Source: Kalmusia sp. IMI 367209
Taxonomy: Eukaryota; Ascomycota; Dothideomycetes; Pleosporales; Didymosphaeriaceae
DNA length: 64,000 bases
Assembly: GCA_027946365.1 (NCBI GenBank)
Contig: JAPEUQ010000004.1
Span: 310,001-374,000, forward strand
Reading direction: 5' to 3'
Shown here: positions 18,262 through 58,300 of the stretch, one piece after another
Layout: each line of letters opens with the position of its first letter
Position numbering within the stretch: the stretch's first letter is position 1
Position numbers and translations under genes: made by a program
The notes under the pieces: model-generated
Told to the model about the DNA's origin: nothing
Seen by the model: the letters and a program-made list of their open reading frames with translations, nothing else
Database searches by the model: none

Positions 18262-19280
18262 CTACGATACATTCGGTTCAGCCAACCAGTCTTCGTTGCC
18301 GCCCAGGTAGCGATATACCACTCGAGAATCCAGGTCGCGACATCTTGGATCTTTACTCGCGGCGTCATATGTATCCAAACCGACCTGTCCTAGCACGTTC
18401 TTCGAACCGACACGCTTTGCCATGTCCACTGCCAGACCAAAGTCCTTGCGCATCAGCTGGACTTTGAACCCTTGCTTATATCCACCTGACGATGGCGCCT
18501 CGGGATACACGTGAGGCACAGGACAGAAACGGTCACAAATCTGATTTTGTGCAGTCCCTGCCGCATATACTTTGGCCAAAGTCCGAGGGTCTAAGCCAGA
18601 CCGCATACCCATATCAAACGCTTCTGAGCAGGCGATCGCAATCACTCCCGAGAGATAGTTGTTTGACAGCTTCGCAGCAAGACCTAAAGACGGGCCACCA
18701 CAAGGGATGATTTGCTTCCCCATCATGCTCGCGAGTTGTGTGAGCCGCTTGAGATTTGGATCCGACTCCGCGCAGCCTAGGAAGAAGGCTATTGTGCCCT
18801 TGATCGCGCCAACAACGCCTCCGCTCACGGGAGAATCGTAAAATGACGCCGTGGGGAAGTGTGTCTCAATATGGTCCTTCACATCCAAACTTGTGGCCGT
18901 GTCTATTGTCGAGCAATCGATGAGCAGCTTGTTCGAGATGTCGGTACTGCATATGCCGTTCGATGGATCGAGGTAAACAGAGCGAACATGCGAGCCTTCG
19001 GGGACCATCGTAATAACTGTCTCCTATACGACTTTTAGTGTTCTCCTATTTCTCCGTCTATTTCACTTACAACCTGTTGAGCAACATCTCTGGCACTGGA
19101 GCTTTTGAACACTCTATTTGGGAACTGTTGACAAACTTCATCCATTACGCCTTCTACGACATCGAAGACAAATATCCGTGACTCTGGTGGAAGTTTATTC
19201 GCAAGATGCACCAGCATTGGTTTGCCCATCGCTCCGAGGCCCACGAACCCCAACGTCCTGAATTCGAGAGGTTCGCTCAT
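18262..19280 (-). CDS. 3-hydroxyisobutyrate dehydrogenase-like beta-hydroxyacid dehydrogenase, copy 1
   Basis: Two exons, 19280-19071 and 19023-18262, joined in phase 0 across a 47-bp GTAAGT intron, give 323 residues. The N-terminal Rossmann motif GFVGLGAMG is at residues 11-19. The family signature DSPVSGGVVGA is at about 133-143. The catalytic lysine is in GLAAKLSNNYL (about Lys188). The enzyme should reversibly oxidise a beta-hydroxyacid to a semialdehyde or keto acid with NAD(P). Length is normal. It is divergent from the second lactonase gene (327 bp between starts). The family also includes tartronate-semialdehyde reductases and sugar-acid dehydrogenases, so a valine-catabolism role should not be assumed. 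Confidence 0.9.
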
Positions 19281-20654: not shown

Positions 20655-21012
20655 GGCGGTTCGATGCTTAACTTTCAGGTCTTAAAATTCAGGTCTTTCC
20701 TTCGATTAGCATTTCATAGCATTCTAATTCTGTGAAACTCCAGATACCATGACTAATCGCCAGCTCGTGACCTTGGCTTGGGGATGTTAGCAACCGAACA
20801 TTGCCGCGGCTTCCAGCTTCCCCGCTCTGCAGTTGGAGAATGTGGGGCAATACTCCGCAAATCAGCACCAGCGCCATCAGAGCACATGCCAAGGCCGACC
20901 CCTCTGACACTGAATCGCCCACAATCTCCACACGGGCCTCATCTACATTCACTAAGGCTAGTCCTAATCCAGACAGCTCCTCTCTAGACGTCCTGCATCC
21001 TAAGCTTCCACG
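20655..21012. promoter_or_regulatory. promoter region of tandem-CMD gene with TTGGRG motifs
   Basis: A 358-bp spacer. TTGGGG at 20778-20783 and TTGGAG at 20833-20838 lie about 180-235 bp upstream of the start at 21013. No coding region. Confidence 0.35.
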
Positions 21013-21918
21013 ATGAGCCACTTCCAGCGTCCGCCCGCCTACTCAATTCTGCCAACTCCACCCAATATGTCGCTTACGCGAGAACAGCAATCGCTCAAAG
21101 AGCGCTTTGATGCGACTCTAGGCCCAGAGGCATTCGACGAATCATGGTCGCGTCTCCTCAAGCATAGTCCGGAGATGTTTGCCGCCTCCTTGCGCTTGAC
21201 GGCCGTCCCAAAACGCAAAGGTCACCTCAGCCCCAAGATCCAGTCTTTCATATCTCTCGCCGTAGCAGCAGCGAGTACTCATCTTCATGTCCCCAACATC
21301 CAGCGCTACACGAAGCAAGCTGTTGCGAACGGAGCGACGAAGCAGGAGATCGTTGAAGTATTGTGTTTATCAAGCACACTGGGCATCCACGCGTGCAACA
21401 TCGGAGTACCACTGCTGATGGAAGTTTTGAGGGAAGAGGGGAGAGAAGTGCAGACTGGCATGGAAGGTATGAACAAGGAGCAGTGGGAATTGAAGGAAGA
21501 CTTTGAAAAGAAAAGGGGATATTGGCACGCTTTCTGGGAAGATTTCCTGAGACTCAGCCCTGAGTTCTTCGAGGCGTATGTGGAATTCTCGTCAGTGCCG
21601 TGGACGAACGAGGGTGGGGCCGGGGTATTGGAGCCAAAGGTCAGTAATTCCATACTGTTGTATTCGTCAACTTGTGCAAAGTTATTGGAGAGGAGTAGGC
21701 TGAACTCGTAACAGGTAAAGGAGTTGATCTACTGCGCTTTCGACGCTGCGGCGACCCATTTATATCAACCAGGCTTAAAACTGCACATGAAGAACGTACT
21801 CGGCTATGGTGGAACGCCAGAAGAGATTATGGAAGTCCTAGAGTTGGCCTCACTGCTGAGTATCAGTACGATGGACGTGGCTTTGCCTATCTTAGACAAA
21901 GAGTTGAGTAGTCATTAA
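21013..21918 (+). CDS. carboxymuconolactone decarboxylase-family protein with two CMD-like halves, copy 2
   Basis: Exons 21013-21639 and 21715-21918 give 276 residues. Two alpha-helical CMD-like units are visible. The first, about 45-140, runs from SPEMFAASLRLTAVPKRKGHLSPKI through HLHVPNIQRYTKQAVANGATKQEIVEVLCLSS. The second, about 175-276, runs from SPEFFEAYVEFSSVPW through THLYQPGLKLHMKNVLGYGGTPEEIMEVLELAS. The halves align with each other, so this is an internal duplication typical of the double-CMD subfamily, unlike the single-unit copy at 17505. A conserved CxxC peroxidase pair is not evident. Function is therefore more likely decarboxylase-like or binding than peroxidase. It converges with the dehydrogenase gene 116 bp away. 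Confidence 0.82.
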
Positions 21919-22034: not shown

Positions 22035-23064
22035 TTACTTCTTCTCGCTCTCATTCAACCATTTGTACACCACCCTCGCATCCTTCCCCTTGTATCTCTC
22101 ATCGCCCATTGCCTCACCAAAGGCATCAAGCGTAGGCCTGTCCAGAATAGTCCGTGCACCAACCATGTCCGCAAGATCGCTTCCCATCTTCAGCACCTTC
22201 GCACATAGCTCTATCCGGAACCCGCCCTCGTAATCCCTCGAACTCGGAACATTCGCCTGAATCCCCGGTACTGGGTTCGACTTCGACGTCACCCAGCACT
22301 GCCCTCCGCTCACATTGATAACATCCGTTAGAAGCGACAGATCAAGCCCCATCTTCGCGCCAATGTTCAGCGCTTCCGAGGCAGCCAGCGAAGTGATGGC
22401 CGAGAGATAGTTGTTGATGACCTTGAACGCTGTGCCCGCGCCCACGTCGCCACACAGAAACACTGCGTCCGCCTTGCCCATGTGCGAGAGATACGACTTA
22501 ACAGTCGGGAAGACATCTTTGTTGTCCGTTCCCACCATGAACGTCAGCGTCCCGTCCTGCGCCCCCATCGGCCCTCCTGAAACAGGCGCGTCTACAAACG
22601 TTAGTTTCTCCTTCACACTCGACTCCTTTGCCCGCTTTGCGACCTCCAATATCGTCGATGTCTCGATGGTCCCACATTCCATGATCACCTTCTCTGCACC
22701 TCCATCGCTGATTGCCTTTTCCGCGCCTGCGATGATGCCCGTTTCGGGGTTTAGGTATACGTCTTTTACGGCGCCGGACCCGGGGGAGCATTGTGATCAC
22801 TGTGTTCGCGCGCTGGACGGCTTCGAAGCCGTTCTCAATGGTTTCTACGGGGCCGAGGGACGTGGTTTGCGAGTGGAAGGTGGATATGGAGGAGGGCACA
22901 ACGTCGCAAACTAGGAGTGTGTGTGAAGCAGGAAGGCCTTTGCGGAGGTTGAGGGCCATGGGGTAACCCATTACGCCGAGGCCTGAGAATTGTTATTATG
23001 GATGCTATGATGACCCGCGAAGTGACTTACCTATGAACGCTACTGTATTATCAGGAGACGACAT
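22035..23064 (-). pseudogene. 3-hydroxyisobutyrate dehydrogenase-like protein, copy 2, with apparent frameshift
   Basis: Exon 1 is 23064-23031 and exon 2 runs 22982-22035. The first part reads MSSPDNTVAFIGLGVMGYP (GxGxxG coenzyme motif) to NTVITMLP. The second part, in another frame, continues with VYLNPETG, APVSGGPMGA and the catalytic lysine in AFKVINNYL. The frames change at a run of five G at 22782-22786 (five C on the coding strand); one base less or two more would restore it, to about 326 residues. A 44-nt GTAAAA...GCAG intron could also bridge the frames, but it would remove the VYLNPETG block, conserved in the copy at 18262-19280. So this is a recent pseudogene, a homopolymer sequencing error or, less likely, an extra intron. 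Role if intact: NAD(P)-dependent hydroxyacid oxidation. Confidence 0.75.
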
Positions 23065-28085: not shown

Positions 28086-29439
28086 ATGGTATATCGGACA
28101 TCCTCATTGCCTCTTCAGTCTTCTCTTGGCTAACGAACTTATAGAGTGGCATCATTGATACATCAGGCCAGGTGAGCTCCAGCTCTCGCTTGCTGCAAGC
28201 TTGCATGCACTGACAATGGCAAGTTTCCTCCTGGCTACCTGGAAGAGAGCCGAGTTCCCCAGATCATTGGTGGGAACGCTGCCGTTCAAGTCCTTGGGAC
28301 TCTCTTTTTCTTCGCACGTGTGTACTCTCGTGTGTTTCTGATGGGCACGTGGAAAAGCGATGACTGGGCTCTAACTGTTGCTTGGGTAAGCGTTCCTCGT
28401 GATAACCTTGCACCATTATTTCATCGCTAATGTAAATCTCTAGATCCTCGCAATGGGCTACAGCACCTGCCAGTATGGTCAAGTGCCCCATGGAGCTGGA
28501 CGGCACCTTGCTGCTTCACCTAATATGGAGAACGCCATTACCAGCCAGAAATGGTCATTCGCGGCGCAGATACTCCTCATATTAGCCATCCCTATGCCTA
28601 AAGTCAGCATGTGTCTATCATATGTGCGTATCTTCTACTCGGACATATCGGGACGGCATCTCATCTACGGGCTGTTGGTTCTACTGGTGATGACCACGGT
28701 TTCCATTTTCACTGAAAGTTTTCTGACGTGTCAGCCATTGGATTTGTATTGGAAGGAGCTGAGGCCTGCAGACAAATGCCTCAAAGACACTGCCACGATC
28801 TACGTCCACGGAAGCGTTAACCTCGTGGTTGACGTAGCATTGATGTGTATTCTGATCCCACGCATACTCAACTTGCAGCTAAACAATCGGCAAAGGTGGG
28901 GGTTGGTCGGCATTGTGATGGTGGGGACACTGTCTGTGGTTGCGGGTGTCGTTCGGCTCGTCCGTGTCGGTACGACACTGAGCAAGTACTATACAACAGG
29001 TCAATTCGACCCCTCGTGGGACATGTATGATGTCTCCATCTGGACATCGACCGAGATCTACGTTGCACTCATCTGCGCGGCGGCGCCAGGTGTGAAGCCG
29101 CTGGTGAACAAGCTACTACCCAAGCTGTTGGGTACAACGTTGCGCAGTCGGACCACGGGCGGACACACGAACCCTGTTGAACTAAGCTCTAAGATGAAGC
29201 GAACGACGCGAGGGACGACACATGGCACGAGGCACTCCACAGTGCTTAAGAGTGGGAGCACCGCGAACCTGACAACGGCGCATGGGCCGTACTCGGAGAT
29301 TCACAGCCTGGGAAAGCACACAGACGAGGATAGCCTGGATGGCAAGAGCGACATTGGGGAGGGACACATTCGTGAAAGGCCAGCAGATGGCATTGTGCGC
29401 AACACGAGGGTAGTGATAACGTCCGAGGAGCGGGTCTAA
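28086..29439 (+). CDS. Pth11-like integral membrane protein (fungal rhodopsin-like domain), first copy
   Basis: Proposed exons 28086-28088 (only the ATG), 28145-28171, 28224-28385 and 28444-29439 give 395 residues. The N-terminus joins to MSGIIDTSGQFPPGYLEESR. Upstream introns have strong donors (GTATAT, GTGAGC) and CTAAC/CTGAC branch sites. The seven-helix fungal rhodopsin-like fold is recognisable: VQVLGTLFFFARVYSR, SDDWALTVAWILAMGYS, KVSMCLSYVRIFY, FLTCQPLDLYW, NLVVDVALMCILIPRI, LVGIVMVGTLSVVAGVVRLVR, and WTSTEIYVALICAAAPGVKPLV. A ~110-residue basic/Ser-Thr-rich cytoplasmic tail follows. No CFEM domain. Relatives act as surface sensors, but most are uncharacterised. The helices are secure; the first two exons are inferred. 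Confidence 0.78.
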
Positions 29440-32868: not shown

Positions 32869-34218
32869 TCATCGCTCTTCAACCTCCACCTCTTTGGAGA
32901 GCTCTATTTCTTTGGACGTGGAATCTATCTCCCGAGACGAGCCGCCATCGATCTCTCGTGCGTCGACGTTTGTGCTCATCTTCGAATCCTTGCGTGACAT
33001 GGACTCTCGCTTGCATACGGCGCGGAAATCTGTCCCGCCGATACTCTGGAAGGCCATGCCTTCTTCGAGCTCGCGGCTCGATGGACAGCTCTTGTCCCGG
33101 GACGAGAGCCGGTCTTGCAGCCTGCAGTAGAGCTTGTTGAGCCATGTTTCTGACACGATGGGTCGGAGCACGGGCAGGCAGCAGGCGATCAGAGCGGAGC
33201 TGACTTCGATGAGACACCACATGATAATCTTTGTGTTTTCTTTTAGGAGATTATTGTGGCCGGGATTGGTAGCTGAGGCGCAGTTTAGTGACGAGCGATG
33301 AGAGAGATCGTGTGGAGCGTATCTTACCGTATGCATCCTGCCACATGATGTAGACGCGAGTTGCGGCTGCGGCTGTAGACAAGAAACCCAAGGCAAAAAC
33401 GCCCAGTATCTGGATCTTCCTCCATATGTTGAAGTTCATGTTCCAGATCATGATGACGGGTGCGACAAGGATGAGCACGTCGATGAACAGATCGGTGAAG
33501 CACATGGCTACGTTGAGGCCGCCGAAGTCGCCGCAGAATTGCGCGATGGTCTGTACGGTTGTCCAGTAGGCTGCCGGTCTGGTGCCGCATTGGAAGGTGC
33601 TTGCAAAGGTGAAGGCGATGGCCCAGATCATGAGGACAACGCACAGCCCGATGGAGTAGTAGGAGAAGAATTTACTGATGTGGAAAACCCGCCGGTACAG
33701 AAATACAACGCTGAGTTTGATCGGTGCCAGCGATACTACCGTTATGATGGGAACGATCCATGAGTACTGTTCGTCATGTTAGGTTCCCGGCTTCTCGGGT
33801 CAGGCTGAGGAGGGGTATGTACCTTGACGTTGGGACCTTCTCTCCACGACCGTATCATGGCACCCGTGATGGGGTCGAGTTGTGAGTTTCCTCCAAAGTA
33901 GCCTTTGATTGTGCCTGTGCAGGTCGTTGTTCAGCCAGTGCGCCAGGGTGTGCTGCAAGCTCGGGTCCGACTCACCGTCTAGGATAACGCCTGTTACGCC
34001 CCACAGCCCAATCTTCAACAAGCCATCAGCGTCGTTGGACCAAGGAGAGTGGAATTTTGAGGCAGAGTTCTTACCAAGCCGACCAGGGAAGTCCAGTCAT
34101 CGACTGCAAACTTTTGTTTTTTGAGGCTGCGCACATAGAAGCGGGCGCCGACGCTGAAGGTGGCCAGCGCCGGCAAAACACTACAAAGCACAAAGAGACC
34201 CGCAGCATTGGTAGACAT
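32869..34218 (-). CDS. Pth11-like integral membrane protein (fungal rhodopsin-like domain), second copy
   Basis: Five exons read on the minus strand: 34218-34075, 34012-33976, 33914-33823, 33766-33328, 33272-32869; 371 residues, start MSTNAAGLFVLCSVLP. Helix landmarks: ATFSVGARFYVRSL with KFAVDDWTSLVGL (the DDW motif after helix 1), then IGLWGVTGVILDG, KYSWIVPIITVVSLAPIKLSVVFLYRRVF, FQCGTRPAAYW, FTDLFIDVLILVAPVIMIWNMN, LGVFALGFLSTAAAATRVYIM, and MWCLIEVSSALIACCLPVLRPI. The ~85-residue C-terminal tail is unusually rich in Ser, Glu, Lys and Arg and probably cytoplasmic. Plasma-membrane sensor candidate of unknown ligand. It points toward the phosphatase gene, like its relative on the other side. 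Confidence 0.85.
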
Positions 34219-35505: not shown

Positions 35506-35855
35506 CTACAGGCCAGTCAAGTCGGCAGCCTCTCTCTTCAGGCCGGTCAGGTCGGCTGCAGCCCTCTTTAGGCCCGTTAGGTCGGCATTTGATCGCTTCA
35601 GGCCTGTGAGAGGTCGGCGCTGGCTCGCTTCAAGCCGGTCAGATCGGTGCTGGATCGCTTGAGGCCGGTGAGGTCGGCGCTTGATCGCTTCAATCCAGTG
35701 AGGTCGTGGCTGGATCGCTTTAATCCAGTGAGGTCGGCGGTCGACCGTTGAACGAGCTCGACGATCCACCGCTTGAGTCCAGTCAGGTCTGTGCTCGCAC
35801 GCTCCTTCAACCCAGTGAGGTCCGTGCTCGAGCGCTTCAGCCCAGTCAAGTCGGC
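35506..35855 (-). repeat. 30-bp coding tandem repeat array of the peptide precursor
   Basis: Units of about 30 bp, each holding one GACCTSACNGG-like block and an AAGCG(A/C/G)-like Kex2 codon pair. Synonymous differences are scattered through the units, indicating constraint on the peptide rather than a very recent DNA expansion. One unit carries the extra AG. Confidence 0.85.
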
Positions 35856-36005
35856 AGCTACCGGATCAGCGTGGCGCTTGAGACTGGCGACCTCTCTAGT
35901 TATCTGCGAATCTGGCGTAGATCCGTAATCCCACGCGATAGGAGCAGCCGTGATCTGGAGCGCCAGGCTCAGAATGAGTGTGATGGCGGCGAGTAGGGAG
36001 CGCAT
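35506..36005 (-). CDS. candidate dikaritin-type RiPP precursor with Kex2-bounded DLTGL repeats (frame broken)
   Basis: The ATG at 36005 opens a secreted protein: signal peptide MRSLLAAITLILSLALQITA, a short leader ending in LKR, then repeats of about ten residues with the form x-x-(A/T/H)-D-L-T-G-L-K-R. Eleven DLTGL units can be counted. Nearly every unit ends in Lys-Arg (Kex2 site); one ends in KER. Between units three and four is an eight-residue spacer, WIVELVQR. As sequenced, the frame stops at 35598 after 135 residues because an AG dinucleotide is duplicated at about 35608-35612. Past it the repeats continue cleanly in another frame to a TAG at 35506. The layout matches precursors of ustiloxin-type peptides and Kex2-processed repeat proteins. 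A UstY gene is divergent 1.5 kb away. The core has no Tyr or Phe, unlike most known dikaritins. Product unknown. Confidence 0.78.
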
Positions 36006-37504
36006 ATTGACAGGGGGGGGGATGTGATGGATAGACCAGTAGAAGCCGCGTAAGAGGGAAGAGGCGCAGTGTGGCGACGTTTGCAATCACACGAGTTCAG
36101 TGTTGTAAGATCTGGGGCCTGCGGAAAGGCAGAGTTGGCTGGTTACGGGGAGACTTATGTCGTTGGCCTGGAATCCGTTGGCGGCGTCGTATAGAACCTT
36201 ATTGCTGGCTATAGAACCTAGATGCTGGGATGGATGCTGAACTTTGTTTGTGATGATGGTTTGTTTTGCTCGCGATCTTGTCATGGTATATGTATACACA
36301 ATGTCGGCCATTAGACGCGCTCGTCTGCTCCACTTTGAAGCTCGTCTCAGCGAACGGTTCCCTATGACGGGGGCCGTACGGGCTCCACGACCTCGATTAT
36401 TTTCCACGGGCACTATCGTCGTCGTTTCGAAAGGTTAGTATCCCTCGGTCAGACTGCCAGTCGAGAAGGCGCAGCGTGGCTTTCGCGATCTTTGTCAGAA
36501 TCCCCGTGATGCTGTCGCACCCATCCTGGATGATGGGCGCCGGGATTCGAGTGATGCTCGGTCAGGGTGTGCGCTGAGCGCGCGTGCATCAATTTACGCT
36601 TCGGTCTCCGAACGCCCGGCTAACGGCTTTAGGAGGTTGTTCGATATGCACGACATCGCTTCGTGCGCACGGCAAAATCAACGTTCCCTCGTTTTTTGTT
36701 GTTTGCTGGTCTGACTTGCTTCCTGGTTCCATAGCTTGGCTGTTGGTCCGATCGACGATCGTCGATCCGATACTCAGCTTATGCGGTGTGTAGCCGCGTC
36801 CATGCCCCTCGTATAGTTGCAGCCGCAACGGCACCGAAACCTGCGTTTATGCGCTCACGGCCCTCCTCGCGGCCCTCCTCGCAATCCCTTCCCTTGGACA
36901 TCGGCGTCCCAGTTGCCCCGCATATTGAATCCTTGCGCACGCCCAATCCTTGCACTAGGTACCCGTCAAACGGGCAGAAACCCGCGCGGTTCTGATAGGC
37001 GCTCGCCCGGCAAATTCCCGAAAGGAACATTAATGTATAAAAACGTTCGGCAATCCACAGTAGCGCCCCTGATCGCTCCGCTGCAGACCGCCATGAATCG
37101 AGGCAAACGACCATCATTTCCAAGAACTGGCAAACGCGGCAGGAAGGCAACCCTGCCTGCCAGGTACAAAACGTGGAACCAGAACAGGGTCCGGAAGCTC
37201 GGACCTGCCTAAGTGAGCCAACCTACAGTGTATACGTTACCCATGGCGGTGCATATGCTCCTCCTCAACAGCAGTCTACCTTGAACGCTGTTGTGGGAAG
37301 CTGGTGGTGCATGTTTGGGGACACTCCCGGAGGATTATGAGGTTAATGGACGCACTGAAGCGACGGGGACTGATGGCCTGACGGATGCTACCTTCCGGAA
37401 ACTAACAAAGGTGAGGATAAGTCTTAACGCAAGAGGTTGATAATCTCATCGTGAACATCATCTTCAGAATCAGAGCTTCCTTACTTACCTTTTTAAACAT
37501 CAAA
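36006..37504. promoter_or_regulatory. divergent promoter region between precursor and UstY gene
   Basis: 1.5 kb separates the starts at 36005 (minus) and 37505 (plus). Open frames at 36087-36413, 36244-36438 and 36779-37212 have no protein character. It should contain the promoters of both genes; no specific element could be assigned. Confidence 0.4.
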
Positions 37505-38421
37505 ATGATTCATCCATCAGAGAAGTGCTTCTTCGATAAGGTTTCGATTGACGGATCCTACGTCGACGACGATCAGGCTTCATCAGCCGACTATGATGCC
37601 TCTGAAGCGCTGTTGGGGGCGTTGAGCACACGCAGCACGGCACAGAGAGGATCAAAGTCCTGGACATCCTGGATGGCAGACAACTCCGCAAAAGTCTTCT
37701 TGACTGTTGCCCTCATTGTCATTGCGGTCGAGAGCATATATATCATTGACCTGCACCGGAGAGCGAACACCCGCTTCCTCGGCCCTAGTATGTCACTCAA
37801 CAACACCGCACTTCGCATCCGCTGATGAATTGAAAGCCGGACTGAGCCACGAACGCACAGTCTCTCGGACAATATACGCACACTCAAAGTACATGTCCAA
37901 CGATGAAGACGAGGCATCCAAGGCATGGGACGAAATCCTGGCGGGCCACGGAGTGATTGCTCTCAACGCCGACGACGTTGCTGAGAAGAATCTTCCGCCG
38001 AGTGTACAACTGCCAGACGAGAGTGGGGATTTCATGTATGTGATTGAAGCATATCATGCTATGCACTGCACAGTAATTCTCCCAGCAAGCATTTCTAAAA
38101 CTTGCACTAACGAGCCTCTAGAAAGTACTCCGCGAGCATTACGTTTTGATGGAGCAAGGTCAATCGTGGAATTGGTCGAGACCTCATGATATGCACTGTT
38201 TCGATGCTTTGCGGCAATACATCATGTGCAACATTGACGATACTATTCTGTGGACAAACGGCCATAGAGAAACGGGCCATGGACAGGAAAAGAAGTGCAA
38301 CGACTGGGACGCACTCCGCGACTACGCAGAGTCCAAGTCGGCCAACTACTTCGATGTTGAGCCCGGAAAGGGCATCATGCACCTGGACAACTACCACCCT
38401 GGTGATGGACTGACGTGGTAA
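37505..38421 (+). CDS. UstY-family (DUF3328) oxidase, RiPP tailoring enzyme candidate
   Basis: Three exons, 37505-37787, 37837-38072 and 38122-38421, encode 272 residues. A cytoplasmic N-terminus of about 65 residues is followed by one membrane helix (VFLTVALIVIAVESIYIIDL, about 66-85) and a lumenal domain. The two diagnostic HxxHC motifs are present: YHAMHC at the end of exon 2, and HDMHCFDALRQYIMCNIDDT in exon 3. Motif spacing and overall length match UstYa/UstYb-like proteins, which oxidise and cyclise Kex2-released core peptides in the secretory pathway, probably with a metal cofactor. The product would be membrane-anchored, facing the lumen that the precursor passes through. Being the nearest gene to, and divergent from, the repeat precursor strongly suggests they work together. 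Confidence 0.9.
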
Positions 38422-39661: not shown

Positions 39662-41744
39662 TTAGCCTATCACCCCTTTCCTGTCTTTGTGTTGGGATAA
39701 TCGGTAGTTTTTGAGCATGAACACCCAGACGAAGCAAGGTACCCAAGCACATGTGCCAACAATCACCATCAGCCTCTGTGCATCACCATATGCACGTACG
39801 ATGGCCTGTCTTTCGGGACTATTCCACGGCAAGGCAAGCTGAGCTGGCAGTGACGCGTAGATAGCCGCGGTCTGGTTCTTAGATTCCTCCGGCAAATACT
39901 GCATTAGCTTTGTCGGTATGGTCTGGGTCCAGATCGCAGCCGAGATAGTCTGGCCAACTGAACCACCAATCGAGGTAATCATTCCTAGTAGTGCGAGTCC
40001 AACCGCAACATTCTCGTGTGGTACAGCTGCCATGACGGCAAGTTGTTCGATCATGACTAGGGAACCGCCACACATGGAACCGAGCACCTCTACCATGACT
40101 AAGAGCCCGATAGCCGTGTTGGGCTGCCGAAAGTGGATCATGAGACCGGTCAAGAGTAGTTGGATGGGGACAATGATGATAGCGAACCATTTGTATCGGT
40201 CCGTGTATTTGAAGACGAGGGAGATTATGACACACCAGGCGCAACTAACAATGTTGAATATGTTCGTGATGTAACCCGCTTTGGCGACGGAAAGTTGGAA
40301 CACGACTTGGAGGTACGACCCGAAGTACATCTTATACGAACTGTTCCTGTTAGTTACAATCCTTTGACACCGTTGGGACCAACTTACTAAAATGCGATCC
40401 AAGTATTACAGCCTAGCATACATGCACCGACCACAGAACGGTCCATCATCAGATGGAAGGGGAAGAAGGTCTTCGGAGCCCAGAATTTCTCCCAGGCTGC
40501 GAAGAGGCCGAGTAACACGAGGCCAAATACGATCATGCAAATAATCATAGTTGATTTCCAACCATCTTTCTGATATGCGGCGAGACTGAAAGGTAGCAGG
40601 AATATTGAGAAGCCGCCACAGATCAAGATAAGACCGACCACTAATGAGATGAGCGTGAACCATGCGCCGCACAGAAATCAACCTACCGTCGAACTCGATG
40701 CACCAGTGTCGAATACTCTGCTGTAAGGTGCGACCACTCTTCTCTCTAACGATAACGCCCTTTTGCTTAGCTCGCCTCGACATTACAAGGAATATAGTCC
40801 AAAATGGTATGCACATGAACGGTGTGATGATGGCAAAAGCCCCATATCCCCAGCGCCATGTGGACTTTTCCAAGAATTTCTGACCCAGCTCAGGACCGGC
40901 GAAGGTGTTGCAGATCTGAAAGTTGAACCCAAGTCAGTAAACTATACAGGCATGAATCATTCTCAGATATGCATCAGGTATGTGCCATCACAAGAGTTCG
41001 TCGGTAACGTACGTATGGTGTTGACGTGAATGCAAACCAAATAGCTCGATTCTTGAGCTTCGATGTGTCTGCAATAAAGATGTTGAGCACGTAGCTCATA
41101 CCGTTCATGCCTGTCCAGTAAAATACCTGCGCCGCACAGTAAGTCTGCACGTTTTGGCACACGGCCATGAGTATTAGAGCTATTGGTAATCAGTTTAATC
41201 GGAAGGCGCATAAGATAGTATACGCACAGAGTAGGACGCTTATGAGGCAGAGCATGAAACCTTGCGGGCGTCCTACTAGATCAATGAATTTGGCAAGCGG
41301 TAACTTCGAGATGCCACCGATGAGGCCAGCCACAATACCCGTGATGCCCGTTAAGCCATGCAGTAGAAATTCCGACGTCACATATGGTGTCCAAGAGTAG
41401 TTCGATTGCTGCTGAAGCGAGTCGGTGAAGCAAATGAGCCAGATACTGCGGGTTGTATTAGTGCTACACATCTCGCAGTCGGTGTACACCAAAGCCATTT
41501 ACAAGATGTACGCTGCAATGAGCCACTCCTTGGTCCACACAAGGGTAATAGCCTCCATCTTCTTTAAGCCAAGGGGCTGGTTCGAGTCGATCGATTCCAA
41601 ATCATCGGCTTTCTGAGGATGGTCATCGTGGTCTGCTTTCGGATGCTCAGTCACTGTTGTCGTCTTCTCTTCGTTATCTTTATTGGGGGTTAGATGCGCC
41701 TCTGCGCCATGAAGATGAGGTATTTCAGTCCCAGTTGCCGCCAT
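39662..41744 (-). CDS. siderophore-iron transporter (SIT family, MFS)
   Basis: Six exons on the minus strand (41744-41503, 41445-41228, 41179-41013, 40915-40687, 40640-40388, 40340-39662) encode 595 residues, the normal size for 14-helix SIT proteins. A hydrophilic N-terminus of about 65 residues leads to TKEWLIAAYIFIWLICFTDSLQQQSNYSWTPYVTSEF. This is followed by the SIT signature IGGISKLPLAKFIDLVGRPQGF, then YWTGMNGMSYVLNIFIADTS, LKNRAIWFAF, and the C-terminal YFGSYLQVVFQLSVAKAGYITNIF. Relatives (MirB/MirC/Arn) import ferric siderophores by proton symport. It could instead accept another chelate or peptide, and its place beside the peptide locus may or may not be meaningful. No siderophore synthetase is in the window. 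Confidence 0.9.
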
Positions 41745-49365: not shown

Positions 49366-52300
49366 ATGGCTGCTTCGCGGGAGTTCCTCCTCCATCAATA
49401 CTACCATGTCGCCCTACCCCGCGACGTTCCCGGAAAAGAAGACCGCAAGCTCTCATGCCGAGTCGAAGCCGCACTGCTCGATCGCATCATTGGTGCTGTG
49501 AAAGCAGTCGCACCTTACGCCCCGTTGCCAAACCAGTCGCTTGTGGACAACATTCGATTGACTCTTGTCACAACGAAGGCGCTCAATGTTGACGGAAAGG
49601 TGGATAAGAATCTTCTAGCGAAGGAGATCAACGAGCTAGACGGGAAGCATGCACTCATCTTGTATGTGACTGAGCAAAACGCCGCTCTGCTTATTTACAA
49701 AGATTCTGGGTACGTTTCAAGGAAATGTATGAACCATCAGGGCTTGAGACTGACCAGGATAGCGGATCGGGTGATGGCCCTTTGATATTCGAAGCTTTTG
49801 AGGCTTCAGCTGTTTCTGAAAAGATCCTCGCTGCGACGAGTGCACTGCAGTGGGACTTCCCCGGGCGCGCAGTATCTATCCCATCGACAGTGTACCGCGC
49901 GCGATGCTTCCAAGATAGTCTTGCCGCCTTTATCGAACAGGCCAGCATCGAGTCAGTGAAGCAATTCGCCGCAGTCACCTACAAAGCGGCCGCACCTATG
50001 CCAGAGATACGCGACACGACGGACCCATCGCTTATAACTGGGCTTCTCATGACCATACTTGAAGCTAACGGCGCAAAGGTTGATGTCCCACTTCTCCAAA
50101 AGCGTGTTCGGGATACTGTGTGCTTCAAGGATGCTTTCAAACCATGGATACGGTCTCCATTCTATCTCGTCATCCGTGTGGCTACACAACGCCATTTATA
50201 CAAGATCATGGGCCCGAACATCGGTTATTTATACTATAAGATCATCATGGCACTTTTTGTATCTCATTTACTCAATGACTGCTATGATTCGATCCCCCAC
50301 GAAGCATCATTCTTCTTGATGCAGAAACTCGGCCGACGCCTTGCCAAGATTGAGCAGCACATATCATGCAATCAAGATGTGTTGTTTTCGAATCTTCGAG
50401 ATAAGTTCAAGAAAATTCTTGGGAACGCCAAAGCGTTTTTAGAGCGCCAATGGAAGCTTTACCAAGAGAGAACTCGAAGGGTTATCCGACCTTTACAACG
50501 ATACGTCAATACACCCGAACTCACTCTACAATTACCATTTAGCGGACAAATGCTGAACCAAATTGCCTTCGGTGGGCCTTGGGGTCTCCCTACACAGGCG
50601 CTTCAGCCTATCCAACTCCTAGAGCAGTACGAGTCATCCGGGGCTCGGACAAAACCCTTCTCAGCTATCGCTGATCGTTACATCAAGCTGGCCAGCAAGG
50701 TAGAAGAGAATATCACACCCGTGAAGGCCATGTCTTTTGATAGAAAAACATGGGAAATTCATTGTTGCTCTCTAGCCCGTACAATCATGTCATACACGTC
50801 TATTACAGGCAATTCTTTCGACGGCTATCCTGAGTTAAAGAGTCTGTTTCTTCTAGATGTGATGGAACTTTGGGCCGAAATGGATCGGCATGCCACAGTC
50901 GGATTTCCTCTCCTGAAATCCTACCATCCGGGATTCGATGCGGACATTCTGGACAGTCTGGAAATCTTACATTTGAAGGACATGAAGCGTGTGCAAGATG
51001 TTCAGGATTACATAAGGCATCGGTGCCGTGGCTGGATAGGTTCTGGATCAAAGACGATATTTGACTCTCCCAAAGAGGATTCATTCGCCGTCGTCTTCTA
51101 CGACAGCTTCGGCGACTCTATAGGCTTAAAAGACATACGAAAACAAATCCAGGCTGAAGCGGCGAGAGCGCGCAAAGCTAAAGAGGAAGAGTGGCGCAAG
51201 TTGAGTCAACAACATGAACAACTCATGAAACAAATTGCCGAGTCAACGTGCCCATACGTCTACGAAGAACAGCCCGATGGCACATTTGAGCGAGTTCATA
51301 AGAAAGGATGTGAAAAGCATCGCTATAAATGGGAGGCGAAACAGATCAAGATCAAAGTCTTTGAAGAACCGCTTCAAGAGTATGAACCTGCTGCTAAGGC
51401 TGCGGTATTCGAAATCAGATGCCCTCAACCGTTCGCTGCTTATAGAGACGCAACGTGGCTTCTACTCGCAACTTTTGGACATCCTCCCGTCCAGCCATGT
51501 GAGAATGTCCCTATACTGCGTTTCTACTCTGGAGTTTCCCACTATATTAAGCCGATGAAGACACAAGTAACTCTAGGCTCTAAGACAAAATCTCATCTAG
51601 ATTGTCACTATTCAGAATCGGGATTTCCTGTGGCCCTGCATCTCATCTGTCGACCGTGCGGCTTGAAGCTCGATTATTACGACACTGTCAGTCAATCATG
51701 GACTAAACGAGAGGAAAGGGCGTCATTTTCTAGACACACTCCTCTTATGCTTTCCCCGAGTTCACCATACCAACGTGTTGGAATTAGCAATGGCAGGTGG
51801 CCTTCCTCAAACGACATTATTGCTAGCCAGACCAAATGTCCTTCAGATTTGAATGTCCATGAGTTCATGGCATGGCAAGGACTTCTTAGTGGTAAACATA
51901 GTCGATGGTTATCGTTACTTCGTGAATTGGGAGCGACGAATCTCAACTTTTCTACCGAATCAACCTGGGCAATAATTTCAAAACTTGTTCTTCAGGTGGG
52001 CTCCTCTTCGCTCGAGAATACTTTGCGAGACATACACGCGGTTTTCGACGATGAAACATTCTGCGAAAAACTCCTTGAGCAAGCGCACCATCGTCTAGAA
52101 GCGATCCATCGCAATTGGCGGGAACCTGTACAGATGGATATCCTCATATCTTTAGCACTCAAGACTATGTCGCTTTCCCCGTCTAAGAAGATCCAGGATA
52201 AGGCCTCAAAACTTTTAGACCAGGCGCGAATGACTACATGGGACTGGTGTGCCGCTCTGCAATCAAATAGCATGTCCATCTCGCGAGAGTCAACCTTGTT

Positions 52301-55300
52301 CACAATATGGGCTTCAGTGCTTTGTAAGCGAACTGTGCAGCATCAAGTGGAGCCAATTGTGAATATAGACTCCGCATCTTTCGAATGCCTCATCAGCGCA
52401 TCTATCTTGCTCCAGGAAAACCTTGTTGGACCATTTGACGGCCTGCCTCATGCGCTACGCAACTTAGTTCTCCAGGATATACTCTTTGCATTTCGAAATC
52501 GCAGCACTTTAGCGAATCTTGTGATAATGCATCAAGAAGCTTTTCTGTTGGCTTTAGATCGTATTTGTCCGCTTCTATCACATTGCTCAGGCAACACTCC
52601 ACATGTTCGAATAGTGCCACAGACACAGTGGGTGGAAGTGTCCGTCAAACCACAGCAGAGGCAGCTTCCTTATTTCGTCCACTTCCACCTGGTCCGTGGA
52701 GACCTGTTGATTAATGGTACACAGTCCGGCATTCTGCCAACGGAATATCACCACGCTACGATTGAAAAGCTCTTTGGAACACACGCACTAAAGGTTAGGC
52801 CCTCACCAGAACCTGGCATGTCACTTTTCATTGCACATCCCGCACCTTTTGGGCATTGGATTCATTTAGGTTTCCGTCGAGGGCAATTAGTCGTGCGAGC
52901 CGTCCAAGGTAGCACTACCCTTGAGCTGATCAATCCTTCCATTTTCAGTGGCAGAGTTGGCAAAGATACTCAATATGATCTTCCTTGGGCTCTAATTGGT
53001 GATTGTTATCACTGGCTCGATCTGAACTCCAATATCTTAGAGATCCGTCAAGACGATGTGTGGAAGTCCAAACCGAGCAACTGGAGGCTCAATCTTATGA
53101 CACGTCAAGCGACGAAGCAGACCTCAACCAAGACCTTGACCAAGACTTCAACCAAAACTTCAATCCTAGTAGATCCTTTCTGCTCAGTTGCCCAGACTAT
53201 TGCGAGAAACTTCCAATACTTTGAGTATGCTTATCACATCATGGTGACGCAACCACAACATGGCCCTATTGCTGTTTCGCTGAAGCGACTCGAATTGAGT
53301 TTCTTCGTCAACTGTCGGGGTCTTTTACAATGTCGCGAACTGGTTGCCGAGATCGTCCGAACTCACCACCAAGATGCTGGTGTATGGTACGGATTGCATA
53401 GCAAGATTGTGTTTCGTTCAATCAAGAACAATCACCAGCGCATGATCCTAGTTCCAGAAGGTCCCATGCGGTTCTGGAAAGCGAATGAGCATATCACGGT
53501 TTATGTCGATCCTGTGGGTACTTATCTGAGATTTGACATTGACGATGTGCTTGGGCGAATCCACTGTCCCGCTGAACATCGTCTTCTCTACACTAAAGCG
53601 CAATGGCACGCCTATACGTCTCATTTCCTACCGGATCCTCTTACCGGACGTACAGGGTCAGAAGAAGCATTGACCTTGCTCCAATCCGGTCTCTACAAAC
53701 CTTGGGCACCACTTCCTACCACTGTAACTGACATCCTGGCCGAGATTGCAAAGCTTTCGCCACGCCGGGACTATTATCCTACCAATTTAAAATGTATGGA
53801 GACGGTATATTGGAACCAAGCCCTCACCACTGCGATGCAGGATGATCGATACCGTGCCATTATTGAGCAAATACGCGAGCGATCTGCACAACTACAATTA
53901 TTCACATGCAACTCGTCTGGAAGACTATCCACAGAGTTCTCACCGGACAATTCGCATCTCGAGTCTCGCTCACTTTCGAGATCTGGAGTCATCGTATCAA
54001 GGCCTGATCTTGTATATATTTCGAGAGATCGTTTGTTTGATAATATCAAACAAAATAGAATAGCTATTGTCGCAGGATTTTTGGCTCATTGGTCCATCAA
54101 TAGCACCAACACAAAGTGCTTGGCTCAGCTCCTGCAGAATCATCCGGTCATCATCGGCTTGAACGAGCCATTCGATCGCGTTCAGATATTTGATCTCATC
54201 TCAACGGATTTGGTGGAAAATTGGGGGGCTCTGGCTCAGACCGCTGTTCAATCCGGTCCTGATGATCGATATCGCTTGATGTTTGTCTTTGGACCTATGG
54301 CATTATCCTCATCCACTTCGATGGATTTGATCCAAGTCTTGATCTCGTATGCTATTCTCTCTGATCTCAAGAAAATTGATCGACCAAGCTGGCCCTCATA
54401 TATTTCATTCAAGATCAACGAGATCCCGGCTGCTAAAGACCTCGCTGAGCTAATGGCACATGCGCATCAACCTCTTCAAATAGCATCAGTACAGAAAGGT
54501 CAGATGGCTTTGGCACGAATAAAACATGAAGAGGCTTGTAAATACAATTGCCTCGAACTTGCAAGATCTATATGCGCTCAATGGTGTCAACTGGAAATCG
54601 ATGTAAACAAGTTGCCCACAATCGATCCTAAGTTTGTTGACACGAGTAGCGCTTTGGAGCCTGTTTTAAGCCAATGGAAACGGCTTGCGCAAAACTTCGA
54701 GTTCTCAAAATATCTTCAGGAAGTCCAACATGTTCTTGATGACCATGCCAACACGATGGACACATCCCCACACGAAGACGTGCATGATGGACGCTCTAAC
54801 CACGGTGTCCCTAGGTACCCTCTCTGGAAAGGCATAGATATTCCTACAGTCCGAGATTTGCTACGCAAAACGATCGATCTTGATGAAGTGTCTTTGAAAC
54901 AAAATCATGTATACACTGGCATCTTTCCTGAATTTACAGGACAATTGCGGCAACTGCCAAATGGACTACTTCCTTCAGCAGACGAGAAGAGACATGAAAA
55001 CACGGGCAACGGAGCTAAACGGCTCGAACAATTGCCTCATCTGAAAGACCTATCGTGTATCGTCGATGGACTTCAGCGGTCCGGCTCCGCTGTGCAGCAC
55101 AAATATGGTCTAGAACTCAAGCAGAGCCTTGACGCTCTGGGCCAACGTATAACTCAACGCTCCCCTGTATTAGCTCCTTTAGACCCCATCGCTTTGAAAA
55201 TGGAGATACAGAAAGCCGTAACAGCCTGCAATGATACTCTTCACGATATTAGTCGAGCTCTTGAGGCAGATGATGGCCGGGTATTGTGGTTACAGCTCGG

Positions 55301-58300
55301 TGGACTATGGCCCAAACTCAACAAGACAACGCTTCTCTCGGAGCTTCGATCGACCTCGAATTCTGTTTTTGGACGAGGGGCCAAAAAAGCACTCGTGGCA
55401 TTGGGCGTCCGGATAACGTCCCTACAACGATTACTTAGGATACAGGATTCTTCGCTCAAGGATCGGCAGCAACAGTTGCAAGAAGAGCGTGTTAATCGAG
55501 GTCATGTCAATTGGGACCCGTTTGTCCAACCTGACTGGTTGCTGCTAGAGATTGATAGTAACATTATGCTCCGTGCAGAACAGGTCGAAGTTGCCAATGC
55601 GACCATGGCCCCTGCATCTGGCCGTAATTCAGTCGTACAACTACTGATGGGTAAAGGCAAAACATCTTGTATTCTACGTAAGTTGATACTACTTGCGATA
55701 TTATATTTCTTGAAATGATGCTAACTGTTTTAGCTATTGTGGCGGCCATGCTTGCCGACAAGCAGCATCTACTACGAATTGTAGTTCCACGAGCTTTGCT
55801 TCTTCAATCCGCACAAGTCATGCACATTAAGCTCGGAGGCCTTTTAGACCGCGAGCTCCTCCATATTCCGTTTTCGCGAAGGACCAAACCAGACAACCAC
55901 TTACTGAAGACGTTCGGGCAACTCTACTCCCATATTAAGAAGTGTGGCGGCATCATGCTCTCCTTACCGGAGCATATTCTCTCATTCAAATTAAGCGGGC
56001 TGCAGCACCTATGTGATGGGAACGTAGAACAAGCCCATACCATGATCAAGATGCAACAGTGGTTAGACAGCAACGCTCGAGACGTATTGGATGAATGTGA
56101 CGTTTCCTTAGCTATACGCACTCAGTTGATCTATCCGTCAGGCTCTCAAATGGCGGTTGACGGCCATCCCTTGCGCTGGCAGACCGTCCAAGGGATCCTA
56201 CGACTTTTACGATTCCATATTCCCGAACTCGAACGGCAATTCCCGCGCAGTATCGAGGTTGTGAGGAGACCAGTCGGAGATTTCCCTCTCCTCTACCTTC
56301 TTCGGCGGGATGTGGAGGATCACGTTGTTTCTCGGATTGTCGATGACATTTGCCAAGGCCAATTGGCAGCAGTACCGTGTGCAGAGGTCCCGCAATCTTC
56401 CAAGGACGATATACAAGTCTTCATCTCCAGTCCTACAGTGGCCCCGCAAGCTGTGTCAAGAGTCAACGACATGTTCAAAGACAAACAGCATGTGATGAAG
56501 ATACTCTATCTCCTGCGTGGGCTGTTTGTCCATCGTATTTTTCTGTCAACCTTAAAGAAGCGCTGGAACGTGCAGTATGGCTTACATCCCACCCGTGATC
56601 CCATCGCGGTACCATACCATGTAAGTGGTGGAACAGAACACTAGCTACCCTTCGATCAGAAATACTAATGTCAACCTAGGCAAAAGGTGTCCCCTCACCG
56701 ACTTCAGAGTGGGGGCATCCAGATGTCGCCATTATCTTGACGTGCCTTTCGTTTTATTACCAAGGCTTGGAATTGAAACAGTTCAAGCAAGCGTTCGAGC
56801 ACCTCTTAAAATCAGATGAACCCAGTATCGAATATGACAAGTGGGCATCGAAGCATCTACCAGGCTCGCTGCGAGACTACAATGCCATCAATGTTGAGGA
56901 CAATGCGCAGTTGCGTGAGCTCCACCAACATGTTCGGTATGCCAAAAAAAAACATGGCCTTCTAATGATCAAAGCTAATTCACATCTAGGTTCAACGTAT
57001 ACTTGCTCGACTTTTACCTGAATAATTTCATTTTCCCGAGGCATGCCAAACAATTTGACACCAAGCTTCAAGCTTCAGGATGGGATCTCGTCCTATTTGA
57101 TCCTACTCTCAAGTCCAACTCTCAGACGACAGGGTTTTCAGGGACCAATGATTCGCGACATCAGTTGCCTTTGACCATCAAACAGAACGATCTATCCAAT
57201 CTAGCTCATACAAATGCGGAAGTTCTCTCTTATCTCTTGGAACCCCGAAATCGACACTACGTTCGCATGGTAGATGACTCGGGTCGAAGGTTGAGCGAAG
57301 AGGATTTATTACAAAGGCTATACAAGTCAATATCAAATGCGCAAGAACGGATTAGAATTTTGATCGACGCTGGAGCGCAGATCCTCGAGCATGATAACTA
57401 CAGTCTGGCTAAAGCTTGGTTGAAAATTGACTGGGAAGCTACTGCTGCAGTGTTCTTTGACTCTGATCATCGCCCGTGGGTCCTTTATCGCAGAGGAAAG
57501 CGCATCCCACTGCTGGCATCTCCATTTGCAGATAATTTAGAGGGCTGCGTGGTATACCTAGATGAGAGCCACTGTCGTGGGACCGACCTCAAACTTCCAC
57601 CGAACGCGAGAGCTGCACTGACCTTAGGCCCCCATGTGACAAAGGACGCAATATCGCAAGCTGCTATGCGTTTGCGACTGCTTGGTATGTTCTTAAAACA
57701 AAGTATGCATGAAAATGCTGACAGTACCACAGGCCAATCTCAATCCGTGACTTTCTTCTCGCCACCCGAGGTTCACCAAAGCATTTTAGATCTTCGAAGG
57801 AAGCCTGAGCAGTACCAAGTAGGCCCCTGTGATGTGATCGCATGGCTTTTACAACAATCCTGCAACGGTATCGAGCAACTTGAGCCTTTGTACTACAACC
57901 AAGGCAATACCTTTATACAGCACGAGCAGGCCAAAATCGACCGTCAAACAAACTTAACCAATGTGCACCAGCGCTCAGAGTATTTGTCCGTTATACGAAC
58001 GAAGGAGTCACACACTCTAAAGCAGATGTACGAGCCGAAACATTTACAGAAGGGTAAGACATCCTAAAATATATATTATAATCAGCAGCTAGCTAATTTT
58101 AAACTTGTTTTTATAGGCGGTAGCACTCGTACAACGTTGCGAAATAGACACCTCCAGGGTTTTGCGGTCGAGCTTGATACTAGAAAGAAAAACTTCCAGG
58201 ATCGTGGCATCGCGACTCACTCCTCAGCTCTCGAGGAAGTCGAGCAAGAGCGAGAAATTGAGCATGAGGTCGAGAACGTACGGGAGCCGGAAAAGCCTGT

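What the first reader, a model, noticed from the sequence alone, without database searches (positions are those of the whole stretch)
35506..38421. Undescribed dikaritin-type RiPP locus: DLTGL repeat precursor divergent from a UstY oxidase
Seen: a signal-peptide protein made of eleven DLTGL units separated by Lys-Arg, and, divergent 1.5 kb away, a DUF3328/UstY protein with both HxxHC motifs and one membrane helix. Known: ustiloxin, phomopsin, asperipin and victorin-type loci pair a Kex2-processed repeat precursor with UstY proteins. Inference: this pair makes a modified peptide with an x-x-x-D-L-T-G-L core. I know of no described peptide with this core. It is a minimal locus, with no tyrosinase, methyltransferase or second UstY nearby.
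Basis: partly seen in the sequence, partly recalled or inferred. Interest (0 to 1): 0.92.

Follow-up and report, generated by a model that had tools for sequence, protein, structure and literature searches.

The report
Tyrosine-free fungal oxidised-peptide gene pair
A fungus carries a gene for a repeat protein that would be cut into short D-L-T-G-L peptides, head to head with a gene for a UstYa-type enzyme predicted to oxidise them, and because the repeated core lacks the tyrosine or phenylalanine that known peptides of this kind use to close their rings, the product is likely to be chemically new.

Summary
The locus is real but not quite as described. On the minus strand, 36005-35598 encodes a 135-aa protein with a signal-like start and seven in-frame DLTGL units; four more LTGL units lie downstream in another frame, because the frame shifts in unit 8. 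So the "eleven units" are not one open protein. The ten DLTGL units all differ in DNA yet are identical in protein, which points to selection on the core. Head to head, 37505-38421 encodes a 272-aa UstYa protein with both HxxHC motifs and 77-89% identical relatives in Didymosphaeriaceae. Its closest paralog in the same genome (contig C8) also has a divergent signal-like small protein, carrying DFSGL-RR and DFSPL. This suggests a family of UstYa/precursor pairs with core D-[LF]-[ST]-[GP]-L. Six of seven precursor/UstYa pairs that I saw in this genome are head to head. The repeated DLTGL core has no Tyr, Phe or Trp, so the dikaritin aryl link is impossible on it. I infer aliphatic C-H oxidation by a copper enzyme. 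The kind (Kex2-repeat precursor plus UstYa) is well known; the aromatic-free core is the new part. Expression and product are unknown.

The parts
35598..36005 (-). Precursor CDS as assembled: 135 aa, signal-like N-terminus, seven in-frame DLTGL units, ends ADLSQA-stop
   Evidence: only itself found at E up to 1 among 3183 candidates from 5.8 billion proteins; in its own genome only itself plus two chance-level hits, E 0.9 and 1.5
35506..35613 (-). Four further LTGL units (PLTGL, then three DLTGL, the last followed by stop) in a frame different from the ATG frame
35598..35615 (-). Place where the repeat frame breaks, inside unit 8
   Evidence: described only, nothing mended
36006..37504 (.). 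Shared upstream region between the two divergent genes (1,499 bases)
   Evidence: start codons
37505..38421 (+). UstYa (DUF3328, PF11807) gene, 272 aa; predicted introns 37788-37836 and 38073-38121
   Evidence: relatives P0002-P0004 align over 99-100% of the query and read across the exon junctions with the same or nearly the same residues
38055..38069 (+). First HxxHC motif (HAMHC), predicted copper ligands
   Evidence: H167, H170, C171 invariant in alignment A3 of 15 relatives
38185..38199 (+). Second HxxHC motif (HDMHC), predicted copper ligands
   Evidence: H197 and C198 invariant, H194 nearly invariant in A3
39662..41280 (-). MFS-like transporter reading frames, neighbour of the UstYa gene; involvement untested
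   Evidence: MFS_1 on 39665-40405, 25.2 bits, below the cut-off of 33.4; no Pfam match on 40409-40933 or 40963-41280

Best explanation
This is a two-gene locus in which a repeat precursor is predicted to be secreted and cut by Kex2 into short [A/T/H]-D-L-T-G-L peptides that the head-to-head UstYa copper enzyme likely oxidises on an aliphatic side chain. Shown: the repeat ORF, its silent-only variation in the core, the intact UstYa gene with both HxxHC motifs, the divergent layout, and a paralogous UstYa on contig C8 with its own divergent signal-like small protein carrying DFSGL-RR and DFSPL. Inferred, step by step: the precursor enters the secretory pathway; Kex2/Kex1 cut and trim at Lys-Arg; X-Ala/X-Pro trimming may follow (first unit HADPVA-ADLTGL, and EA-ADLTGL and AA-ADLTGL in the other frame, look like Ste13 sites); the membrane-anchored UstYa works in the same lumen and oxidises Leu, Thr or Asp at C-H (hydroxylation, halogenation, desaturation or an aliphatic cross-link). 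Ring closure through a Tyr or Phe side chain cannot happen on this core.
For: UstYa family match and both motifs; 16 relatives at E up to 0.001, the closest four 77-89% identical and all Didymosphaeriaceae (the 89% one covers 65% of the query). All ten DLTGL units differ only silently. The C8 paralog (73% identical over query 172-270, 49% over 95-182) has a divergent 76-aa signal-like protein with DFSGL-RR and DFSPL-stop. The pattern D-hydrophobic-[ST]-[GP]-hydrophobic before a dibasic site or the end arises at least once in 29 and twice in 0 of 200,000 shuffles of the C8 protein (pattern chosen after seeing both), and in 50 loci, 299,267 bases with overlaps, it occurs two or more times in one frame only at the window locus and C8. 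A protein from ENA, P0018 (contig of 765 bases), keeps residues 30-50 of the C8 protein, DFSGL-RR included, unchanged. Seven UstYa genes, of about 44 looked around (hand count), sit beside a repeat or repeat-like precursor; six of the seven are head to head. DUF3328 proteins are binuclear copper enzymes that can hydroxylate C(sp3)-H, shown for CctR (PMC12435403, parts 1 and 2 of 3 read).
Against: No expression or product data. The precursor frame breaks in unit 8. The window precursor has no relative in other species by sequence, although its UstYa does, so conserved linkage across species was not shown. In the tree the C8 UstYa is not placed as sister of the window gene; its place is unresolved (80/83, drawn open), so the two pairs need not come from one ancestral pair. 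The C8 protein has only two or three imperfect units and one clean dibasic site. One piece released from the window precursor holds a Trp (WIVELVQRSTADLTGL). The next-closest paralog after C8, on C29, showed no such precursor in the 1 kb upstream that I could read. Of the five other repeat proteins beside UstYa genes, a signal-like start is visible in two (L030, L047).
Confidence: 0.6

Rival explanations
1. The repeat gene makes an unmodified linear secreted signal (pheromone- or hormone-like), and the UstYa next door serves something else.
For: Most Kex2-repeat proteins have no DUF3328 gene nearby (6120 of 7878, PMC7329392 section 7); the core has none of the residues known to be cross-linked; this genome has about 73 UstYa genes (102 exon-level matches grouped by hand).
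Against: About 73 genes in 42.8 Mb put only about 0.7% of positions within 2 kb of one (arithmetic); head-to-head layout recurs in 6 of 7 pairs seen; the closest UstYa paralog also sits beside a protein with a similar core. Pheromone precursors almost never have DUF3328 neighbours (three exceptions, PMC7329392 abstract).
Confidence: 0.2
2. The locus is a dying or dead copy: the frame break marks the start of pseudogenisation, and the layout is a relic.
For: Frame shift inside unit 8; no precursor relatives found elsewhere.
Against: Silent-only variation in the seven DLTGL units before the break and the three after it, seven usable units upstream, and an intact UstYa whose motifs are conserved. 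The break could also be an error of the assembly; no reads were available.
Confidence: 0.12
3. A conventional dikaritin-like aryl-linked macrocycle, made on the single Trp-containing piece (WIVELVQRSTADLTGL) or together with genes elsewhere.
For: One released piece has a Trp; UstYa enzymes in known clusters close rings at Tyr or Phe (PMC7329392 section 7; PMC9233826 passages).
Against: Only one copy carries Trp while the ten DLTGL units are held constant; no tyrosinase within about 97 kb.
Confidence: 0.05

Closest known systems
Ustiloxin / phomopsin / asperipin-2a loci (dikaritins)
   Same: Secreted multi-core precursor with Kex2 sites, UstYa (DUF3328) gene close by; asperipin-2a also has a single DUF3328 gene (PMC7329392 section 7)
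   Different: Core DLTGL has no Tyr; no tyrosinase and no second UstYa in the window; no Methyltransf_23 or S41 peptidase match found there
Victorin locus (Cochliobolus victoriae; order Pleosporales from recall)
   Same: Kex2-type multi-core precursor; a Leu side chain is cross-linked (PMC9233826 passages)
   Different: Victorin closes the ring with a Phe side chain; DLTGL has none
Epichloecyclins (GigA)
   Same: Secreted imperfect repeats probably processed by Kex2 (PMC9233826 passages); DUF3328-linked (PMC12048977 passage)
   Different: Ring uses Tyr
CctR, cyclochlorotine hydroxylase
   Same: HxxHC(x)nHxxHC DUF3328 enzyme with one membrane helix and a proposed lumenal active domain; hydroxylates an aliphatic carbon (PMC12435403)
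   Different: Acts on a non-ribosomal cyclic peptide; its sequence was not compared here
KEPs with DUF3328 but no Tyr (types G-3, G-8, P-3 of Umemura 2020)
   Same: Show that Tyr-free cores occur beside DUF3328 genes
   Different: Those contain His-His or Trp; DLTGL has neither

Membership tests
KEP (Kex2-processed repeat protein, Umemura 2020 criteria) | At least 3 tandem repeats of at least 8 aa between dibasic sites, none over 100 aa | tested here: met
   SSHDLTGL, SSADLTGL, SSTDLTGL plus three longer DLTGL pieces in the ATG frame; criteria from PMC7329392 section 13, whose own repeat-scoring code was not run
KEP (Kex2-processed repeat protein, Umemura 2020 criteria) | N-terminal signal peptide | not testable with these tools
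   No signal-peptide predictor was run; by inspection MRSLLAAITLILSLALQITAAPIA looks like one
UstYa / DUF3328 (PF11807) | Profile match over the curated cut-off | tested here: met
   46.5 and 35.9 bits on separate exons, cut-off 25
UstYa / DUF3328 (PF11807) | Two HxxHC motifs | tested here: met
   HAMHC and HDMHC; 5 of the 6 His/Cys invariant in A3, the sixth nearly so
UstYa / DUF3328 (PF11807) | Single membrane helix near the N-terminus | tested here: inconclusive
   By inspection KVFLTVALIVIAVESIYII; the ortholog P0003 model has helix 52-88 with pLDDT 86-87 over 61-80, but the model as a whole is poor (mean pLDDT 47.3)
Dikaritin (five-gene definition of Ding et al. 2015 as quoted in PMC12048977) | Tyrosinase gene | tested here: not met
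   Nearest match on the contig at C25:247452-248216, about 97 kb from the precursor
Dikaritin (five-gene definition of Ding et al. 2015 as quoted in PMC12048977) | Several DUF3328 genes | tested here: not met
   One in the 64-kb window
Dikaritin (five-gene definition of Ding et al. 2015 as quoted in PMC12048977) | Methyltransferase gene | tested here: inconclusive
   No PF13489 match in the window, but only 28 of 76 candidates were scored; other methyltransferase families were not searched genome-wide
Dikaritin (five-gene definition of Ding et al. 2015 as quoted in PMC12048977) | Transporters or peptidases | tested here: inconclusive
   An MFS-like gene ends 1.2 kb from the UstYa stop; no S41 peptidase in the window
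Dikaritin (chemistry) | Aromatic residue in the repeated core for the side-chain ring | tested here: not met
   None of the ten DLTGL units has Tyr, Phe or Trp; one spacer piece has a Trp
Dikaritin (later definition: DUF3328 is the class-defining enzyme, quoted in PMC12048977) | DUF3328 enzyme modifies the core | not testable with these tools
   Needs a product or gene-removal test

The most novel reading that the evidence does not exclude
A family of UstYa/precursor gene pairs, older than the split between the window and C8 enzymes, makes peptides on a D-[LF]-[ST]-[GP]-L core; in the DLTGL branch the copper enzyme works on a core with no aromatic residue at all, giving an oxidised, halogenated or aliphatically cross-linked ribosomal peptide of a type not yet described.
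Probability: 0.35. Interest if true: 0.7.

Novelty: new variant of a known kind. Interest (0 to 1): 0.5.

Why it matters
UstYa enzymes are tied to several fungal peptide toxins, and ring closure by them in ribosomal peptides has been read as needing Tyr (or, in victorin, Phe). A conserved aromatic-free core beside a single intact UstYa gives a clean two-gene test of whether these copper enzymes modify plain aliphatic residues in ribosomal peptides. The C8 pair (Phe in the core) in the same genome is a natural comparison.

Tried and rejected
Homology for the precursor: none by one-sequence search (3183 candidates) or in its own genome beyond itself and two chance-level hits. A profile of the window and C8 precursors found only the window protein and P0018, a relative of the C8 one. 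Solved structures for the UstYa: no hit at E up to 10. AlphaFold on the ortholog P0003 with 15 sequences: mean pLDDT 47.3, so I ran no fold search. Intron as the cause of the frame break: three donor-like sites on the strand (35934, 35861, 35800), none judged strong, so no splice model was adopted. Weak Pfam hit of the precursor to IQUB (17.6 bits, below its cut-off of 27.8) rejected as repeat noise. Reading DLTGL as a changed form of the ustiloxin EDYXI motif via EDF on C8: noted (motif quoted in PMC6339444, passages), too weak to claim. Neighbouring fungal genomes could not be examined: the genome collections on hand are prokaryotic, and metagenome scans are capped at zero.

Full report
What is there. 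The window is C25:310001-374000 of an unnamed 42.8-Mb fungal genome in 30 contigs. Its UstYa protein is closest to proteins of Paraphaeosphaeria (89% over 65% of the query), Bimuria (80%), Karstenula (78%) and Paraconiothyrium (77%), all genera of Didymosphaeriaceae, Pleosporales; in a tree of 18 proteins it falls in their clade with 99/99 support. So the fungus is very probably a member of that family (inference).

The precursor. The minus-strand frame from ATG 36005 to the stop at 35598 encodes 135 aa: a signal-like start, then HADPVAADLTGL-KR, SSTDLTGLKERASTDLTGL-KR, WIVELVQRSTADLTGL-KR, SSHDLTGL-KR, SSADLTGL-KR, SSTDLTGL-KR, ASADLSQA. Seven DLTGL units are in this frame. The frame breaks inside unit 8; one PLTGL and three DLTGL units follow in another frame and end at DLTGL-stop. 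Whether it is real or an assembly error cannot be told here. The ten DLTGL units are ten different DNA sequences; mean pairwise difference is 3.64 of 15 bases, none of them changing the protein, with about 4.4 silent sites per unit. That is what selection on the peptide leaves; the pattern holds on both sides of the break, so the break is young or not real (inference).

The enzyme. ATG 37505, introns 37788-37836 and 38073-38121, stop 38421, 272 aa (two other splice choices for the first intron were open, 264 and 270 aa, and the relatives decide for this one). Orthologs P0002-P0004 read straight across the first junction with the same residues. PF11807 matches two exons above cut-off. Both HxxHC motifs are present; their six His and Cys are invariant (five) or nearly invariant (one) in 15 relatives. 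For CctR these residues form a two-copper site and the enzyme hydroxylates an aliphatic carbon with O2; its active domain is proposed to lie in the organelle lumen (PMC12435403, parts 1 and 2 of 3 read). Kex2 works in the Golgi (PMC7329392 abstract), so precursor and enzyme could meet there (inference).

The pair is not alone. The closest paralog in the genome is on C8 (73% over query 172-270, 49% over 95-182). Head to head with it, 0.8 kb from start codon to start codon, lies a 76-aa signal-like protein whose second half reads EDFEDFSGL-RR-NAAPKALPIDIEDFAPTDPSDFEDFSPL; it is one contiguous frame at C8:388988-389215. Its DFSGL-RR and DFSPL-end match the pattern of DLTGL-KR and DLTGL-end. The pattern was chosen after seeing both, so the shuffle result (29 of 200,000 with one hit, 0 with two) is a guide, not a test. 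In 50 loci totalling 299,267 bases (overlaps and copies of the window locus included) the pattern appears otherwise only as two single hits before a stop, in L030 and L043. P0018, from ENA on a contig of 765 bases, keeps residues 30-50 of the C8 protein unchanged but differs at its C-terminus. The C8 UstYa is not placed as sister of the window UstYa in the tree and its place is open, so if the pairs are homologous the duplication is old.

Wider pattern in this genome. One search gave 102 exon-level UstYa matches, by hand about 73 genes. I could look around about 44 of them (25 in 20 stretches of about 10 kb, 17 to 1.5 kb each side, plus C8 and the window). A simple Kex2-repeat finder found five further repeat proteins beside UstYa genes: L015 (..DEGFSKIIY), L030 (..EFAGISYSRLYKEAEEAGL), L039 (EDSDDVWLW), L045 (SSPVPPLWDGGVE), L047 (AVAVGPIIEEAGEGYES). 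A signal-like start is visible in L030 and L047; in the other three the first exon, if any, was not modelled, and L015 is cut by the end of the locus. With the window and C8 that is seven pairs; six are head to head, and L047 is convergent (coordinates). All five others carry Tyr or Trp in the repeat, C8 carries Phe, and only DLTGL has no aromatic residue. The finder misses spliced precursors and needs three repeats (it missed C8), so seven is a lower bound.

Other genes nearby. Tyrosinase, S41 peptidase and Methyltransf_23 searches of the whole genome gave no match in the window (one search scored 28 of 76 candidates). Pfam was run on 39 of 73 window ORFs of 110 aa or more; an MFS-like gene is the nearest neighbour beyond the UstYa. 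P450s and other tailoring families were not searched for.

Against what is known. The kind is known: 1758 of 7878 Kex2-repeat proteins found in a survey of 1461 strains have a DUF3328 gene among the 15 nearest genes, most often next door, and most repeat types are unique at least at genus level (PMC7329392, abstract and sections 7, 9, 13 read). In that set 65.6% of repeats contain Tyr; the three Tyr-free types among the seven abundant DUF3328-linked types contain His-His or Trp. Known rings use Tyr (ustiloxin, phomopsin, asperipin, epichloecyclin) or Phe to Leu (victorin) (PMC9233826, passages). DLTGL can do none of these. Under the five-gene definition quoted in PMC12048977 (passages) the locus fails on tyrosinase and on several DUF3328 genes, so I do not file it as a dikaritin; it works like one in precursor logic and enzyme family.

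In print. DLTGL occurs in 4 papers and DFSGL in 12 of 5.39 million, none on fungal peptides judging by titles and starts of abstracts (listings only). Further searches on DUF3328/UstYa precursors (listings) brought up no such core, but the papers listed were mostly not opened. Supplementary tables of the two large surveys, where such a protein might be listed, could not be read.

Judgement. The pair is most likely functional as a modified-peptide locus (my estimate about 0.75 for the pairing, from the C8 pair and silent-only variation); with aliphatic C-H chemistry as the modification, about 0.6. The finding is a new variant of a widespread kind, and testable with two gene deletions.

Noticed in passing
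L028 131-817 (C8, minus strand): A methyltransferase-like ORF lies beside the C8 UstYa, on the side away from its precursor (best 25.6 bits against a cut-off of 30; PF08241 21.6 against 21.2).
   Followed up: partly
L015 1-300, L030 6513-7157, L039 6550-6978, L045 6394-6660, L047 3322-3867: Five other Kex2-repeat proteins beside UstYa genes in the same genome, four of them head to head, all with Tyr or Trp in the repeat; the four scanned (not L015) match no Pfam family.
   Followed up: partly
L050 (C29:1297901-1298900), minus strand: Upstream of the next-closest UstYa paralog after C8, a Pro/Gly-rich repetitive frame (GRPTGGFGGRPTGGF) without dibasic spacing.
   Followed up: no
window 28444-29436 (+) and 33254-33778 (-): Two fungal rhodopsin-domain (PF20684) genes on the low-coordinate side of the precursor.
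   Followed up: no
window 49674-55715 (+): A 2014-aa reading frame with DUF6606 and DUF3638 domains; further long frames on the same strand reach 58997 (not scanned), perhaps one giant gene.
   Followed up: no
window 18265-19023 and 22038-22796 (-): Two hydroxyisobutyrate-dehydrogenase-like genes close together with a carboxymuconolactone decarboxylase-like gene between them at 21004-21708.
   Followed up: no
window 35852-35523 (-): Residues before ADLTGL in the first unit (HADPVA) and in two units of the other frame (EA, AA) look like X-Ala/X-Pro trimming sites of Ste13 as described in PMC6339444 (passages).
   Followed up: no
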